Shown: in pieces, positions 700 through 35,069 of the stretch
How the letters are laid out: every line of letters begins with the position of its first letter
How positions within the stretch are numbered: the stretch's first letter is position 1
Assembly (NCBI GenBank): GCA_030673105.1
Contig: DAOVJS010000006.1
Coordinates: forward strand, 1-36,740
Length of the DNA: 36,740 nucleotides
Direction: 5' to 3'
From: Spirochaetota bacterium
GTDB taxonomy: Bacteria; Spirochaetota; B62-G9; DRHN01
Position numbers and translations under genes: made by a program
Notes under the pieces: model-generated
The model's database searches: none
Seen by the model: the letters and a program-made list of their open reading frames with translations, nothing else
What the model was told of the DNA's origin: nothing

Positions 700-1166
700 T
701 ACAGGAACTTCATCACTACTACGGGTCATTCCGCCCCTGTGTCCCGCATCGGTACTCTCACCCTCGTGGGTCCTCCACTTGAGTTTCTCCCTTCACATCA
801 GGGCGACAGGTTCCCACGCTCCACACACGAGCCTGAATTAAGGTCACGCCACCTTTATGCCGGACGCCACTCAGGCAGTAAACAGGCTCCCCCTGAGCTC
901 ATCCTGGAATAACGACTGCTTCCAGTTTTGACATCGTCCCTACGCTTTCGACACCTCTTCGATGGTTCGTTTGCACTCGTCTCCTTAATCCTCACCTGAC
1001 ACGATCTCTTGCCGTGCCTTTTCCCTCAACGCTCACCACCCTGGCTCTTAACCAGCGCAGCTTGAGGCGGTTTGAAGCCTACTCCTGCAAGTCGGCTCCG
1101 AGGGGCCCACCCTCATCTCATGTGTAGCACCGCACATATATATCTTCATGTACGCTCGTGGCGCAC
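1..1166 (-). mobile_element. Group II intron, 5' part (runs off the left edge)
   Basis: The intron begins on the minus strand at 1166 with GTGCGCC, matching the GUGYG 5' end of group II introns. It is inserted after the first base of a codon in the recombinase gene. About 470 nt of non-coding, G-rich sequence (1166-700) would be the domain I-III RNA. It ends with the stretch GTAGTAGTGATGAAG (about 706-720), which I recall as typical just ahead of bacterial group II maturase genes. The reverse transcriptase frame follows. The 3' part, with domains V and VI and the second exon, lies outside the window, so I cannot say whether the intron can splice, and I do not assign a class. Confidence 0.85.
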
Positions 1167-2040
1167 AATCATCTGCGTCTCGATAAGGTGATATACTTAT
1201 TAATTCTTGTAGATATGCTGAGGTTTTTGACGGAATCGGTATTTCCCTTTCTGATCTCCATTTTGGATTTTTAAGGCCATATTTTCTAGACCAACCATGA
1301 AAAATACCTACATAGTTTTTGTGTAAGTGTTTTATCATTAGTGCTTGAATTTCACCCATCCGCATTCCAGTACTTGCGGACAATAGATTCAAACAAAAAT
1401 GTACGAGATCCCCATCCCAAACCTTTTTTATATTATCATCTGTGAATAATTCTCTTATCTCATTAATGGTAAAAATGTCTCTTGTTTTTGGTGTTTCCTT
1501 TAACCTCTTTACTGATTCCGCAGGATCATTCTGTAAATATCCCAATCTTTTAGCTTCTTTCAGCATTATTTTAAATGTTTTCAGGCAGTGATTGACTGTT
1601 GTGGCTGTTAAAAATTGACCAAACTTGCTAGGCTTTTCCCTAAGTTTTAGTATCCAATTTTCAATCATTTTAGTTGTGATCTTTTGAAGTTTTTTATTAC
1701 CAAATTCCAGAAGAATATGATTTTGTAAATAGGACCTCATCGAATCAACGTAATCTCTTGAGATATCTGACCCTCTGACACGTTTCCCTTTTACATATTT
1801 ACATTTTTCCCAAAGCCACCAGTCCTGAGCATATTGGGCAAAGGTAATATTTTTATTTGTCGTTATTATGCCTTTTTTTAGTTGTTCAATTGCCCAGATT
1901 TCCGCTGCTGTTTTACTTGTTTGCCCAGTAGACATTGCAGTCATTCGATTTCCACTTTCGTCATAAAATTGGCAGTAATAAATATATTTATTATTTCTAG
2001 TCGTAGCTCTTTTATAGAGGTTATACGGTTTGTGTGCCAT
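1167..2040 (-). CDS. Tyrosine recombinase/phage-type integrase, 5' exon, interrupted by a group II intron
   Basis: The 291 codons before the intron give an N-terminal arm-type DNA-binding segment (about residues 1-55), a SAM-like core-binding domain (about 60-165, starting ITFAQYAQDWW) and the start of the catalytic domain with the box-I arginine in SASTGMRMGEIQAL. The second catalytic Arg (HxxR) and the Tyr are missing because the intron cuts the gene at codon 292. If read through, the frame adds about 39 intron-coded residues that are not protein homology. I chose ATG at 2040 because AAGGAG at 2049-2054 sits 8 nt before it; an in-frame GTG at 2047-2049 overlaps that ribosome-binding site. 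The gene starts 127 nt beyond the 3' end of tRNA-Leu, the usual position for an element integrated in a tRNA gene. Confidence 0.8.
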
Positions 2041-2066
2041 AAGATACACTCCTTGCGTCTTATTTG

Positions 2067-22547: not shown

Positions 22548-23744
22548 CTATACTGTAATATTCACAACAGTAGAAATCCACGGAAGGCCTGACATTGAAG
22601 CCCTGCTAATCTCTAAATCCTGATCCTCATCTTCAATGTTATTTATACCCGGCCCCTTTTTAACATCCTTTCCCGCGGTTTCAGGCTCTGTATTCCTGTC
22701 CTTCACCTCAACCTCAAAAGAGCCGAGGCTGAAACCCTGCTCCAAAAGATTCTGCTCAAGAATGTTGAGCCTGCTCATGATTAATTCTTTTACAGCCTGG
22801 TTATCAACAACCATAAAGGTGTTTACCTCGTTATTATAGAGTTTCAGGCTCAGCTTCACCTGCCCGAGAACCTCAGGCTGCAACACAACCTTTGCCTCTC
22901 CCCCTCCCTTTTTTACAACCATCGAAAATTGCTTAACTATATCATTAAATATCTCATCGGCACTTCTATGAATTTGATAATCCGGTTTTGTGACCGTGTT
23001 TGGAATATTGTTTTCATATTTTAAACAGGCAAAAGAGAACTCTCTCCCGCCTTGAGCGGCCTTTTTGCCTCCTGAAGAGTCCCGGGCCTCTTTCAAATCG
23101 TCACCAAGAAACTGCTCCGCAGCATTTTTCGACTTAATCGTAACTGTATCATACTTTTCACCAAACCCGATATTCTTCCTTTTACCGTATCCTTTTATTT
23201 TTACATATTTTTTGTTTTTAATTTTTTCCTTAAACGAGTTTACCGTATTTTTCTTTACTGTTTCCGTGTATTGTACAGATCCCAGTGTCCGTAAATATAT
23301 CTTCTTCCCGTTTCTCAAGAGGCTATTATGAAAAAACGATGTTCTTCTTCTATTATGTATATTTCCGCCCTGAAATCCTTTCTTCTGCTGTTTTTCCGTT
23401 TTCTGCTCAGGGGCCGGATTCACACTTTTATTGAAAATTACCTTTCCTTTAAGACGTCCGCTTCCGGGACTCTGTGACCCGGGACTCACATCTCCCGCGA
23501 GCTGCTTGATCAGGGAAATTATTTTCTTTCCGGATTTAACACTCTTCTTCGCTATATTCTTATCAGGATTTTTAGGTTTAACTTTTTGGTCCTTATCGCC
23601 CTCTCCCTGTATCCTGTGCCAATGCCCGAGAAGCGAAGAAAACTGCTGATCCCCGGATTCAACAGACTTATTATTGATCTTTTCAGGCTTCTTACCATGA
23701 GCCTTAACACTCTGAGCTTCAGCCATACCGGGAGTACTAATCAT
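22548..23744 (-). CDS. fliK: FliK-type hook-length control protein
   Basis: The product has 398 aa. The first 270 residues are low-complexity, very rich in Lys, Gly, Asn and Ser with little predicted order, as expected of an exported ruler. Residues about 275-375 form the FliK C-terminal (Flg_hook) domain: AKVVLQPEVLGQVKLSLKLY, then MSRLNILEQNLLEQGFSLGS. FliK measures hook length and triggers the FlhB switch. ATG directly follows the stop of the flbB 3' frame (TAG-ATG). It occupies the place called flbC or tap1 in other spirochaetes. Confidence 0.88.
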   Translation of the reverse strand: MISTPGMAEAQSVKAHGKKPEKINNKSVESGDQQFSSLLGHWHRIQGEGDKDQKVKPKNPDKNIAKKSVKSGKKIISLIKQLAGDVSPGSQSPGSGRLKGKVIFNKSVNPAPEQKTEKQQKKGFQGGNIHNRRRTSFFHNSLLRNGKKIYLRTLGSVQYTETVKKNTVNSFKEKIKNKKYVKIKGYGKRKNIGFGEKYDTVTIKSKNAAEQFLGDDLKEARDSSGGKKAAQGGREFSFACLKYENNIPNTVTKPDYQIHRSADEIFNDIVKQFSMVVKKGGGEAKVVLQPEVLGQVKLSLKLYNNEVNTFMVVDNQAVKELIMSRLNILEQNLLEQGFSLGSFEVEVKDRNTEPETAGKDVKKGPGINNIEDEDQDLEISRASMSGLPWISTVVNITV

Positions 23745-24008
23745 CTATTCACCAACCTTTGTCATCTTTCTCTGTAATGTCGCAGCTTTATCAGGATCCA
23801 TTAGACTGAGAAAATAGGGCACGACTGAAACCTTTCCCTCTTCTTCAGCTTCCTTATCTATCTGTCTGAGGATATCAATCGCGAGAAGGTCGTCGAGTTT
23901 GGAAATCCTCTCAACAGCAGCAGGCGGCGGCATATTTATTAAATATCCTGCCTGCGTTTTTATATTTTCCTTATAATTATCGTATTCACGAAGTTTTTCG
24001 CTTAACAC
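23745..24008 (-). CDS. flbB: FlbB C-terminal part (MgtE_N-like domain), separate overlapping frame
   Basis: The frame gives 87 aa, starting GTG at 24006-24008 inside the end of the upstream flbB frame. The sequence LREYDNYKENIKTQAGYLIN, then MPPPAAVERISKLDDLLAID and VPYFLSLMDPDKAATLQRKM, is an MgtE intracellular N-terminal-like helical domain. It is found in FlbB of spirochaetes and, by equivalent position, in YlxF of Bacillus. It continues the upstream 120-aa frame in the -1 frame. Together they make about 207 aa, close to the length I recall for Borrelia FlbB. GAGGAAGAG lies 5 nt before the GTG, so independent, coupled initiation is also possible. Confidence 0.75.
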   Translation of the reverse strand: MLSEKLREYDNYKENIKTQAGYLINMPPPAAVERISKLDDLLAIDILRQIDKEAEEEGKVSVVPYFLSLMDPDKAATLQRKMTKVGE

Positions 24009-24364
24009 TTTTTCTCTTCCTCCAACCGGTTCGCCTCTTCAGATAGCTTTGCCTCAATCTCCTGTAACTCAAGCGATCTTTGCTCAAACACCTGTTTTTC
24101 CAATTCCAGCTCCTTTGTCCTGGCAAGAAGTATATCTTCCCTTTTTTTAAAAAACTCTTCCTCAAGGAGCAGAGGATCTTCTGATACTTCCACACCTCTC
24201 TTCATAAAAGCGGGAAGATATTTCTCAAAGGGCCCGACATAATTTTTATAGTCCACCATCCCAAGATGGTCAAACCAGTAGATACCCCCGAGCGTGATCA
24301 CCAGTATAAGCAGCACCAGAAAAATAACTTTAAGAAGGTTTGTGATTGTTGATGCTGCGCTCAT
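24002..24364 (-). CDS. flbB: FlbB N-terminal part (membrane anchor and coiled coil)
   Basis: The frame gives 120 aa. A membrane helix near the start (about 8-30, LLKVIFLVLLILVITLGGIY) is followed by a short periplasmic or membrane-proximal segment and a highly charged coiled coil (about 65-118). The frame ends GAG AAA AAG TGT TAA, where a -1 shift would join it to the MgtE_N-like frame. In Borrelia, FlbB is a base component of the periplasmic collar around the spirochaete motor. GGAGGG stands 5 nt before the ATG. Whether the product is two chains, a frameshift fusion or a broken gene cannot be decided from the sequence. Confidence 0.75.
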   Translation of the reverse strand: MSAASTITNLLKVIFLVLLILVITLGGIYWFDHLGMVDYKNYVGPFEKYLPAFMKRGVEVSEDPLLLEEEFFKKREDILLARTKELELEKQVFEQRSLELQEIEAKLSEEANRLEEEKKC

Positions 24365-24377
24365 TTAAACCCTCCAA

Positions 24378-25001
24378 TTATCTATGGTTTGAAAATGTAT
24401 CGTAATAATCCAGCACCGATTGGATGAATTTCTTAGTTTCAGGAATATCAGGGATATCTTCCCCAACCCTGCCGGGACCGGCATTATAGGCGGCAAGCGC
24501 TTTGTTCAGGTTTCCCTCATAAACATTTATGAGCTCCCGTAGATACCTGGTACCGCCGAAAATATTTTCTTCAGCATTGAAAGCGTCCTCAACACCAAGA
24601 AGCTTCGCTGTATCAGGCATTATCTGCATAAGTCCCATTGCGCCTTTATTCGAAACAGCCGTTTGATCAAAGTTCGACTCCTGCTTTATTACCGCCCTGA
24701 TAAGAGATTCAGGTATTCTATACTTTTGAGAGGCTACTTTTATTATTTCTTCTAAACCGCTGGTGCTTTTAAGGGATGTTCCTTTTTCACCGCTCTGCAC
24801 CGCAGGCACGGGGCCTTCACTTTTCTCTTCGGTTTTTTGAGTTACCCGTTCTGCTTTTGTTTCCGCACTTTGAAGCTTCTGTTCAAAACTGTTATTAAAT
24901 CCCGGGTAGGTAATTTTTCTCTGTACTCCGTACTTTCTCTTTATTTCATCTATCCTGAAAAGGACACTTTCAATATTCTGAAATATGCTGCTCCCGGACA
25001 T
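24378..25001 (-). CDS. SLT-family lytic transglycosylase in the flagellar operon
   Basis: The product has 207 aa. The first 85 residues are charged and linker-like. Residues about 86-200 form the lysozyme-like SLT domain: the catalytic Glu in IKQESNFDQTAVSNKGAMG, GLMQIMPDTAKLLG and ALAAYNAGPGRV are all present. Such enzymes cleave peptidoglycan glycan strands and open a path for the rod. No Sec signal peptide or lipobox is present, and none can be gained by an earlier start because the ATG overlaps the fliJ stop (TAATG). Flagellar type III export is a plausible route, as for FlgJ of enterobacteria. The gene is inserted between fliJ and flbB, which I recall as adjacent in Borrelia. Confidence 0.9.
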   Translation of the reverse strand: MSGSSIFQNIESVLFRIDEIKRKYGVQRKITYPGFNNSFEQKLQSAETKAERVTQKTEEKSEGPVPAVQSGEKGTSLKSTSGLEEIIKVASQKYRIPESLIRAVIKQESNFDQTAVSNKGAMGLMQIMPDTAKLLGVEDAFNAEENIFGGTRYLRELINVYEGNLNKALAAYNAGPGRVGEDIPDIPETKKFIQSVLDYYDTFSNHR

Positions 25002-32233: not shown

Positions 32234-33613
32234 TTACAGAATATATTTTGAAAGATCCTTATTTTCGAGCACCTCCTTAAGCCTGGAGCGAACATAATCC
32301 ACAGTAACAGGTATAGTTTGACCCTTTAATTCCGGAGCTGAAAAGGACACATCCTCAAGCAGAAGCTCCATTATGGTATACAGCCTTCGGGCGCCTATGT
32401 TTTCTGTCTGTGAATTAACAAATGTCGCGATTTTAGCAATCTCCTTTATCGCATCCGGTCTAAAATCGAGCTCAACTCCCTCAGTTTTGAGCAGTGCCGA
32501 GTACTGCTTCACGAGCGCGTTTTTGGGCAGAGTCAGTATCTTTTCAAGGTCATCAGTTGTGAGGCTTTTCAGCTCAACCCTTATCGGAAACCGCCCCTGC
32601 AGTTCAGGTATCAGGTCAGAAGGTTTGCTCATATGAAACGCGCCCGCTGCAATAAAGAGTATATGATGAGTTCTTACCGCGCCGTACTTTGTGGTCACTG
32701 TGGAGCCTTCCACAATCGGAAGAATATCTCTCTGAACGCCTTCCCTCGATACATCAGGGCCGTGGGAGCTTCCTTTAGTCGCTATCTTGTCTATTTCATC
32801 CAGGAATACAATCCCTGACTGCTCAACCCTCTCAATCGCAATTTTGACGACCTTATCCATATCGATTAACTTGTCCCTCTCCTCTTCCTCCAGTATTTTT
32901 CTGGCTTCTTTTACCATGACCTTTTTCCTTTTCTTCTTTTCAGGAAAAATATTGTTGAACATATTCGAAATATTACTATCCATGTCCTCCAGACCGGTAC
33001 CGGCAAACATACCCAGAACCTGGGTTTTTGGCTGCTTTACTTCTAATTCAACCACCTTATCCTCAAGCTCTCCCTTTTTCAGCATCTCCCTGAACCGGTC
33101 CCTCGTCTTTGTACGCTTTTCATCAGGACTGGTCCCGGCTCTTTCACCGGCCGCCTCCGGCGCGGGACTTTTTCTGGGAAATGAAATTGGAGGAAGCAGT
33201 ATATCGAGAAGATCTTCCTCCGCCCTCTCTTTTGCGATGGTCTCGACTTCCTCACTTAATTCTTTCTTTACATCATTTACAGATATATTGGTCAAATCTC
33301 TTATCATGCTCTCAACATCTCTCCCCACATAGCCGACCTCGGTGTACTTTGTGGCTTCCACTTTCATGAAGGGAGCCCCGCTGATATTTGACAGCCTCCG
33401 CGCAATTTCTGTCTTACCGACACCGGTTGGTCCGATCATAATGATGTTTTTCGGAGCCACCTCATCTTTCAAATCTTCGGGCAGATTTTTTCTCCTGTAA
33501 CGGTTCCTCAGGGCGATTGCAACAGATTTTTTTGCCTTTTCCTGTCCAATTATATATGTATCCAGTTCCGCAACAATCTGGGCCGGAGTTAGTTCATCTT
33601 CTGATTTTCCCAT
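32234..33613 (-). CDS. hslU: HslU, AAA+ unfoldase of the HslUV protease
   Basis: The 459-aa protein opens [20 protein letters not shown], with Walker A GPTGVGKT at 61-68 and the pore-loop region [13 protein letters not shown]. The I domain (about 110-240) is longer than average and rich in charge. Walker [13 protein letters not shown] is near 270, and [12 protein letters not shown] and [15 protein letters not shown] complete the AAA+ module. HslU unfolds proteins and feeds them to HslV. The start overlaps hslV by 25 nt and has GGAG 5 nt before the ATG. Confidence 0.97.
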
Positions 33614-34146
33614 GTTATCTCCTCTACTATAATGTTCTCATTTGTATATATGCATATAGAAGCCGCTATTATCAGCGATTCAGTCACCATGTCCCTAACT
33701 GACATTTTGATACCTGATTTTAAGAATGCTTTCGCGGCTGCTGTCGCGTATGGGCCCCCGGACCCTATGGCAAGTATGCCGTCTTCCTCAGGCTTTATCA
33801 CATCACCTGCCCCCGATATAAGAAACATACTTTCTTTATCCGCTACTATCAGCAGGGCCTCGAGTCTCCTCAGAATTTTATCAAGCCTCCACTCCTTGGC
33901 CAGTTCGACTGCAGCGCGGGCGAGATCTCCGCTGTACTGATTTAATTTACCCTCGAACTTTTCAAAAAGTGCGAAAGCGTCAGCAGTGGCGCCGGCAAAC
34001 CCAGCGAGGACCTTCCCTTCGTACATCCTCCGGACCTTCCGGGCATTGCCTTTCATGATAGTTTTCTCTATCGTCACCTGGCCATCGCCTCCCATCGCTA
34101 TACCGTCTTTACCAAGAATAGCCAATACAGTCGTCCCTTTAATCAT
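33589..34146 (-). CDS. hslV: HslV, threonine protease subunit
   Basis: The product has 185 aa. [10 protein letters not shown] begins the proteasome-beta fold. Removal of MIKG would expose the catalytic Thr at residue 5. The family stretch [20 protein letters not shown], the [14 protein letters not shown] segment and [18 protein letters not shown] confirm it. It forms double-hexamer rings capped by HslU. The gene starts 8 nt after xerC ends and overlaps hslU, so expression is shared. Confidence 0.97.
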
Positions 34147-34154
34147 ATGACCTC

Positions 34155-35069
34155 CTATCTTGCATGAGGATGATACCTGTCGTATAATGCCTTCAGCCTT
34201 TCCATGGTTACATGAGTATAGATCTGTGTAGTCGACAGACTCACATGCCCAAGCAGCTCCTGTACAATCCTGATATCCACCCCGTTATCCAGCATATGGG
34301 TGGCAAAGGAATGCCTTATTGTATGAGGTGACATTCTCATTTTTACTGATGCCTTTTTTATTGCATTATTAATGATGTTTCTTATCTGGCGGGCGGAAAG
34401 CCTTCTTCCCGAAAGCGATGTGAATACCGCATCCGGACATGTCTGCCTCACATCAAGCCAGTCTTTAATCTTTCCCACCGCAAACTCACCTGCGGGTATC
34501 AGCCTCGTTTTATTTCCCTTTCCCCTGAGTGCAACAAGCCCGGTCCTGAAATCTATATCTCTCAGGTTAAGCCCGATCAATTCACTCACCCGTGCTCCGG
34601 TACCATATAGAAATGAAATGATCGCAAGGTTCCTTATATCAAGTTGTGAATCCGTGAAGGCACCTGTCAGGATACAAAATATTTCCTCTTTTGGCACTGC
34701 CCTTGGAAGTTTTCTCTCACCTTTCGGACTAACCACATTTATAATACTGCTGCCGGTTATTGATCCCTGTTTTATAAGAAACCGGAAAAAGGCTTTTGTG
34801 CTTGAGACTCTTCTTGTGAGAGACCTTCTTGATACACCTCGTGACAGCTCAGATGCAAGAAAATCCCTTAGATCATTTTTTTCTATGTCCTCCAATCTCT
34901 TTTCATAGAATTCTTTTTCTACATGCCTTAAAAAGAGAACGATATCCTGAATATACCCCCGAATCGTATTATCCGAACGATTTATAACTTTTAGATATTT
35001 ATAGAACTGTGTCACCTCTTTACTGAACTGAATTTTTTCACTACTTTGCAGGAGATTTTCCAAACTCAT
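34155..35069 (-). CDS. xerC: XerC/XerD-type tyrosine recombinase
   Basis: The product has 304 aa. An N-terminal SAM-like domain (about 15-105) is followed by the catalytic domain with all expected residues: Arg160 in GTGARVSEL, Lys184 in LRGKGNK, His249 and Arg252 in PHTIRHSFATHML, His275 in LLGHVSLSTT and the nucleophile Tyr284. It would resolve chromosome dimers at dif. The position between topA and hslV is the same as codV/xerC in Bacillus and in Treponema. It starts 2 nt after the topA stop. XerC is preferred over XerD by context only. Confidence 0.9.
   Translation of the reverse strand: MSLENLLQSSEKIQFSKEVTQFYKYLKVINRSDNTIRGYIQDIVLFLRHVEKEFYEKRLEDIEKNDLRDFLASELSRGVSRRSLTRRVSSTKAFFRFLIKQGSITGSSIINVVSPKGERKLPRAVPKEEIFCILTGAFTDSQLDIRNLAIISFLYGTGARVSELIGLNLRDIDFRTGLVALRGKGNKTRLIPAGEFAVGKIKDWLDVRQTCPDAVFTSLSGRRLSARQIRNIINNAIKKASVKMRMSPHTIRHSFATHMLDNGVDIRIVQELLGHVSLSTTQIYTHVTMERLKALYDRYHPHAR

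What the first reader, a model, noticed from the sequence alone, without database searches (positions are those of the whole stretch)
24002..24016. flbB split into two overlapping frames at an A5G run: frameshift, split gene or lesion
Seen: the 120-aa membrane/coiled-coil frame ends GAG AAA AAG TGT TAA, and the MgtE_N-like frame continues in -1 with GTG TTA AGC. Slipping back one base on AAA AAG gives EEEKKVLSEKL without a break, and one extra A would do the same. Joined, the length (about 207 aa) fits FlbB of Borrelia, a collar protein of the periplasmic motor. A Shine-Dalgarno-like GAGGAAGAG also sits 5 nt before the GTG. Three readings are open: programmed -1 frameshift giving short and long FlbB, a true two-chain FlbB with coupled start, or an error or mutation in a homopolymer.
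Basis: partly seen in the sequence, partly recalled or inferred. Interest (0 to 1): 0.62.

Follow-up and report, generated by a model that had tools for sequence, protein, structure and literature searches.

The report
Ordinary flagellar gene with broken frame
The gene for the spirochete flagellar collar protein FlbB is interrupted by the loss of one base in a run of A's in this draft metagenome assembly, while all 104 related genomes with a match carry it as one unbroken gene, so this is an ordinary sequencing error or recent mutation and not a new mechanism.

Summary
On the minus strand a 120-aa frame (24364-24002) ends GAG AAA AAG TGT TAA, and an 87-aa frame (24008-23745) continues in -1. 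The pieces match adjacent parts of one family, NCBIfam NF047368 collar FlbB (profile 2-109 and 111-192 of 193). The programmed-frameshift and two-chain readings fail. All 104 other spirochaete genomes with a match, including one of the same genus, carry FlbB as one open frame. Five of the six closest read GAG AAA AAA (six A's); the window has five. The heptamer is G AAA AAG, not the canonical A AAA AAG. The RNA just downstream is less structured than about 95% of stretches in intact genes. In-frame AAA AAG occurs 30 times in the other window genes. The C-terminal piece shows no relaxed selection, and it lacks a membrane or export segment, which FlbB's periplasmic head should need. The cut falls mid-way in one predicted 80-residue helix. 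The source is a 61%-complete, 240-contig assembly. Best reading: an isolated one-base loss, more likely an assembly or sequencing error than a true recent mutation; reads would decide. Interest is low.

The parts
24002..24364 (-). N-terminal piece of flbB (120 aa): membrane helix plus the first part of the coiled coil, last residue C then TAA out of the ancestral frame
   Evidence: NF047368 positions 2-109, 70.8 bits
23745..24008 (-). C-terminal piece of flbB (87 aa) in the -1 frame: end of the coiled coil and the globular head
   Evidence: NF047368 positions 111-192, 104.9 bits
24006..24016 (-). Break point: run of five A's (GAG AAA AAG TG) where five of the six nearest relatives have six (GAG AAA AAA)
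24014..24022 (-). Shine-Dalgarno-like GAGGAAGAG; it encodes the conserved E-E-E of the coiled coil (LEEEKKVLSEK) and is purine-rich in unbroken relatives too
24378..25001 (-). Upstream neighbour: lytic transglycosylase (SLT domain), intact
22548..23744 (-). Downstream neighbour: FliK-like hook-length protein, intact

Best explanation
This is an ordinary flbB gene in a standard spirochaete flagellar operon whose frame is broken once, by the loss of one base in a short A run. In the assembled sequence FlbB would end after the membrane helix and part of its coiled-coil spoke, and the head would be missing. Most likely (about 0.6) the break exists only in the draft assembly (sequencing or consensus error) and the cells make normal FlbB. 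Otherwise (about 0.33) it is a recent true mutation in the sampled population, expected to impair collar assembly and motility. Shown here: the break, its isolation among relatives, and the absence of frameshift signals. Inferred: error versus mutation, and the effect on motility.
For: All 104 other genomes with a match have FlbB as one open frame of 195-244 aa with no stop inside. The same-genus genome (HyVt-370) and most other near relatives have AAA AAA at the junction where the window is one A short. The two pieces abut on one profile, while intact relatives score 196-198 bits full length. The C piece is as close to outgroups as the unbroken relative is (78/82/74/81% versus 77/78/71/73%), so there has been no long-term decay. 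No other conserved gene of the window is broken, although 86 homopolymers of 6 or more sit in the 36 other genes. The source assembly is a 240-contig draft, 61% complete. The break cuts the middle of one predicted helix, residues 64-143 of the intact relative.
Against: If systematic homopolymer errors were common, more of the 86 runs should be broken. No split was seen in about 139 kb of other contigs, a partial check of adjacent gene pairs. So if this is an error it is a rare one, and a true mutation remains possible. No reads were available.
Confidence: 0.93

Rival explanations
1. Programmed -1 ribosomal frameshift on AAA AAG giving a short and a long FlbB.
For: AAA AAG can slip back one base, and a purine-rich Shine-Dalgarno-like stretch lies just upstream.
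Against: No relative has a split frame to be shifted. The heptamer is G AAA AAG, so the first tRNA would re-pair with a mismatch. The 60 nt downstream fold at -4.5 kcal/mol; about 95% of comparable windows in intact genes fold at least as well, and the same small hairpin is in the unbroken same-genus gene. AAA AAG in frame occurs 30 times in other window genes, 11 of them as A AAA AAG. No Rfam family matches.
Confidence: 0.03
2. True two-chain FlbB with a coupled start at the GTG (24008).
For: The GTG overlaps the end of the upstream frame, just before its TAA, with a ribosome-site-like stretch before it.
Against: 159 of 1078 out-of-frame start codons in intact window genes have a similar motif. 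The motif encodes conserved glutamates. The second piece has no hydrophobic segment by reading, yet the FlbB head sits in the periplasm around the MS-ring, tethered through its N-terminal membrane helix (PMC11750108). The cut is inside one continuous predicted helix. No relative is split.
Confidence: 0.03
3. Phase variation by slippage at the A run, switching FlbB on and off.
For: A frame-breaking change in a homopolymer of a motility gene is the usual form of such switches (general knowledge).
Against: The run is only five to six A's; runs of six or more are common in other genes here (86). The run is explained by two conserved lysine codons, and more distant relatives use AAG there.
Confidence: 0.01

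Closest known systems
FlbB, periplasmic flagellar collar protein (NCBIfam NF047368; Borrelia burgdorferi FlbB, 205 aa)
   Same: Both pieces together match the family over its whole length; operon position and total length of about 206 aa agree.
   Different: The reading frame is broken once after about residue 119.
dnaX-type programmed -1 frameshift (A AAA AAG with upstream Shine-Dalgarno and downstream hairpin)
   Same: An AAA AAG pair and a purine-rich stretch just upstream.
   Different: Heptamer starts with G; no meaningful downstream structure; no conservation of the split in relatives.

Membership tests
FlbB (NF047368) | Curated full-length score of at least 110 bits | tested here: inconclusive
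   The pieces score 70.8 and 104.9 bits, contiguous on the profile; intact relatives 195.8 and 197.9.
FlbB (NF047368) | Location in the spirochaete flagellar operon near fliJ and fliK | tested here: met
   Neighbours FliI, FliJ, SLT, [flbB], FliK, FlgD, FlgE; same order in relatives.
FlbB (NF047368) | One continuous chain: membrane helix, long coiled coil, C-terminal head | tested here: not met
   Chain broken in the assembly after residue 119; the intact relative is predicted as helix 3-33, long helix 64-143, and a head.
Programmed -1 frameshift | Canonical X XXY YYZ slippery heptamer | tested here: not met
   G AAA AAG.
Programmed -1 frameshift | Downstream stimulatory structure | tested here: not met
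   -4.5 kcal/mol against a mean of -10.1 in intact genes.
Programmed -1 frameshift | Split frame and site conserved among relatives | tested here: not met
   0 of 104 relatives split.
Programmed -1 frameshift | Junction peptide made in cells | not testable with these tools
   Needs proteomics.
Two-chain FlbB | Second chain has its own membrane or export signal | tested here: not met
   No hydrophobic segment in the 87-aa sequence (read by eye).

The most novel reading that the evidence does not exclude
A species-specific -1 frameshift in flbB that makes a short, head-less FlbB next to the full-length collar protein.
Probability: 0.03. Interest if true: 0.5.

Novelty: already known. Interest (0 to 1): 0.08.

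Why it matters
It matters little beyond annotation: an automatic pipeline would call two short proteins here or a pseudogene. If the break is real in cells, it would point to a non-motile or altered-motility subpopulation of an uncultured spirochaete. If programmed, it would be the first such control of a periplasmic collar protein known to me, but the evidence is against it.

Tried and rejected
A codon-usage screen for other frameshifts in about 139 kb of the same assembly: the first, strict version missed flbB itself. The looser version listed 45 close gene pairs; family scans of 20 proteins from pairs outside the window gave distinct or complete families and no further split. This is only a partial survey. 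A nucleotide alignment that included wrong-strand loci was partly meaningless and was replaced by codon comparison. dS to the same-genus relative is saturated in the N half, so the break cannot be dated closely. No solved structure matched the C piece. Literature search for programmed frameshifting in spirochaete flagellar genes: no papers held.

Full report
Observation. On the minus strand of the window a 120-aa frame (24364-24002) ends ...LEEEKKC* and an 87-aa frame beginning at GTG 24008 continues in -1 as VLSEKLREYDNY... to 23745. The A run has five A's, as reported. Both frames match NCBIfam NF047368, periplasmic-type flagellar collar protein FlbB, at profile positions 2-109 and 111-192 of 193, so they are the two parts of one FlbB. 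The suggested MgtE_N likeness of the second piece was not seen in Pfam at E <= 1e-3.

Context. The gene lies in a standard spirochaete flagellar operon (FliF, FliG, FliI, FliJ, lytic transglycosylase, flbB, FliK, FlgD, FlgE, MotA, MotB, FliL, FliO, FliQ), with the same order in relatives. The window is contig 25 of a draft genome of 2.3 Mb in 240 contigs, 61% complete. The same-genus genome is a metagenome assembly titled Spirochaetes bacterium HyVt-370.

Relatives. Of 149 genomes searched, 105 matched the N piece: the window's own genome and 104 others. All 104 others carry it inside a single open frame of 195-244 aa without internal stop. The C piece gave the same picture in 27 of 30 others. 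At codon level five of the six closest relatives read GAG AAA AAA followed by GTA, GTT or CTA; the sixth reads CAG GAA AAA GTT. The window reads GAG AAA AAG TGT TAA, one base short in the A run.

Is it programmed? The heptamer is G AAA AAG rather than A AAA AAG. The 60 nt downstream fold weakly (-4.5 kcal/mol, against a mean of -10.1 in 424 windows of intact genes; 95% fold at least as well), and the small hairpin is present in the unbroken same-genus gene, where it follows from identical codons. A longer 88-nt stretch has z = -2.4, but most of that energy comes from a stem about 50 nt downstream, too far for a frameshift stimulator (general knowledge). In-frame AAA AAG is common (30 times, 11 with a preceding A) in the other window genes. 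No Rfam family matches.

Is it two chains? The Shine-Dalgarno-like stretch encodes conserved glutamates of the coiled coil and occurs in similar form in unbroken relatives. About 15% of out-of-frame start codons in intact genes have a similar motif nearby (159 of 1078). In Borrelia, FlbB is a parallel coiled-coil dimer whose N-terminal helix sits in the membrane and whose C-terminal heads form a periplasmic ring round the MS-ring; a C-terminal GFP tag already abolishes the ring (PMC11750108). The 87-aa piece has no hydrophobic segment, so on its own it would stay in the cytoplasm (inference). AlphaFold2 of the intact same-genus FlbB (mean pLDDT 83.7, pTM 0.47) gives one helix over residues 64-143; the break at residue 119 cuts it.

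Error or mutation? The C piece is as similar to outgroups as the unbroken same-genus protein is, and dN/dS to that relative is about 0.06 in this half. The break is thus either recent or not in the cells. No other conserved gene in the window is broken despite 86 homopolymers of six or more bases in the 36 other genes. A partial survey of about 139 kb elsewhere found no further split. Errors of this kind are therefore rare in this assembly, which leaves room for a true mutation. I put artefact at about 0.6, true recent mutation at 0.33, and all functional readings together at 0.07. Only the reads can settle it.

Noticed in passing
window 24378-25001: A lytic transglycosylase (SLT domain) gene sits between fliJ and flbB; relatives of the same family have it in the same place, so it is a family-level variation on the Borrelia operon order (Borrelia order from memory).
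   Followed up: partly
window 34155-35069, 33589-34146, 32234-33613: Tyrosine recombinase, proteasome-family (HslV-like) and AAA (HslU-like) genes lie next to each other upstream of the flagellar operon; the same order is in relatives.
   Followed up: partly
window 1048-2049: Weak tyrosine-recombinase-like protein (XerC/XerD, E about 1e-7) at the far end of the window, with no match in the syntenic stretch of the same-family genome G004.
   Followed up: no
G020:C54:98565-98792: The match to the C-terminal FlbB piece runs through one TAA in this relative, whose open frame is 197 aa; probably a shorter C-terminus.
   Followed up: no
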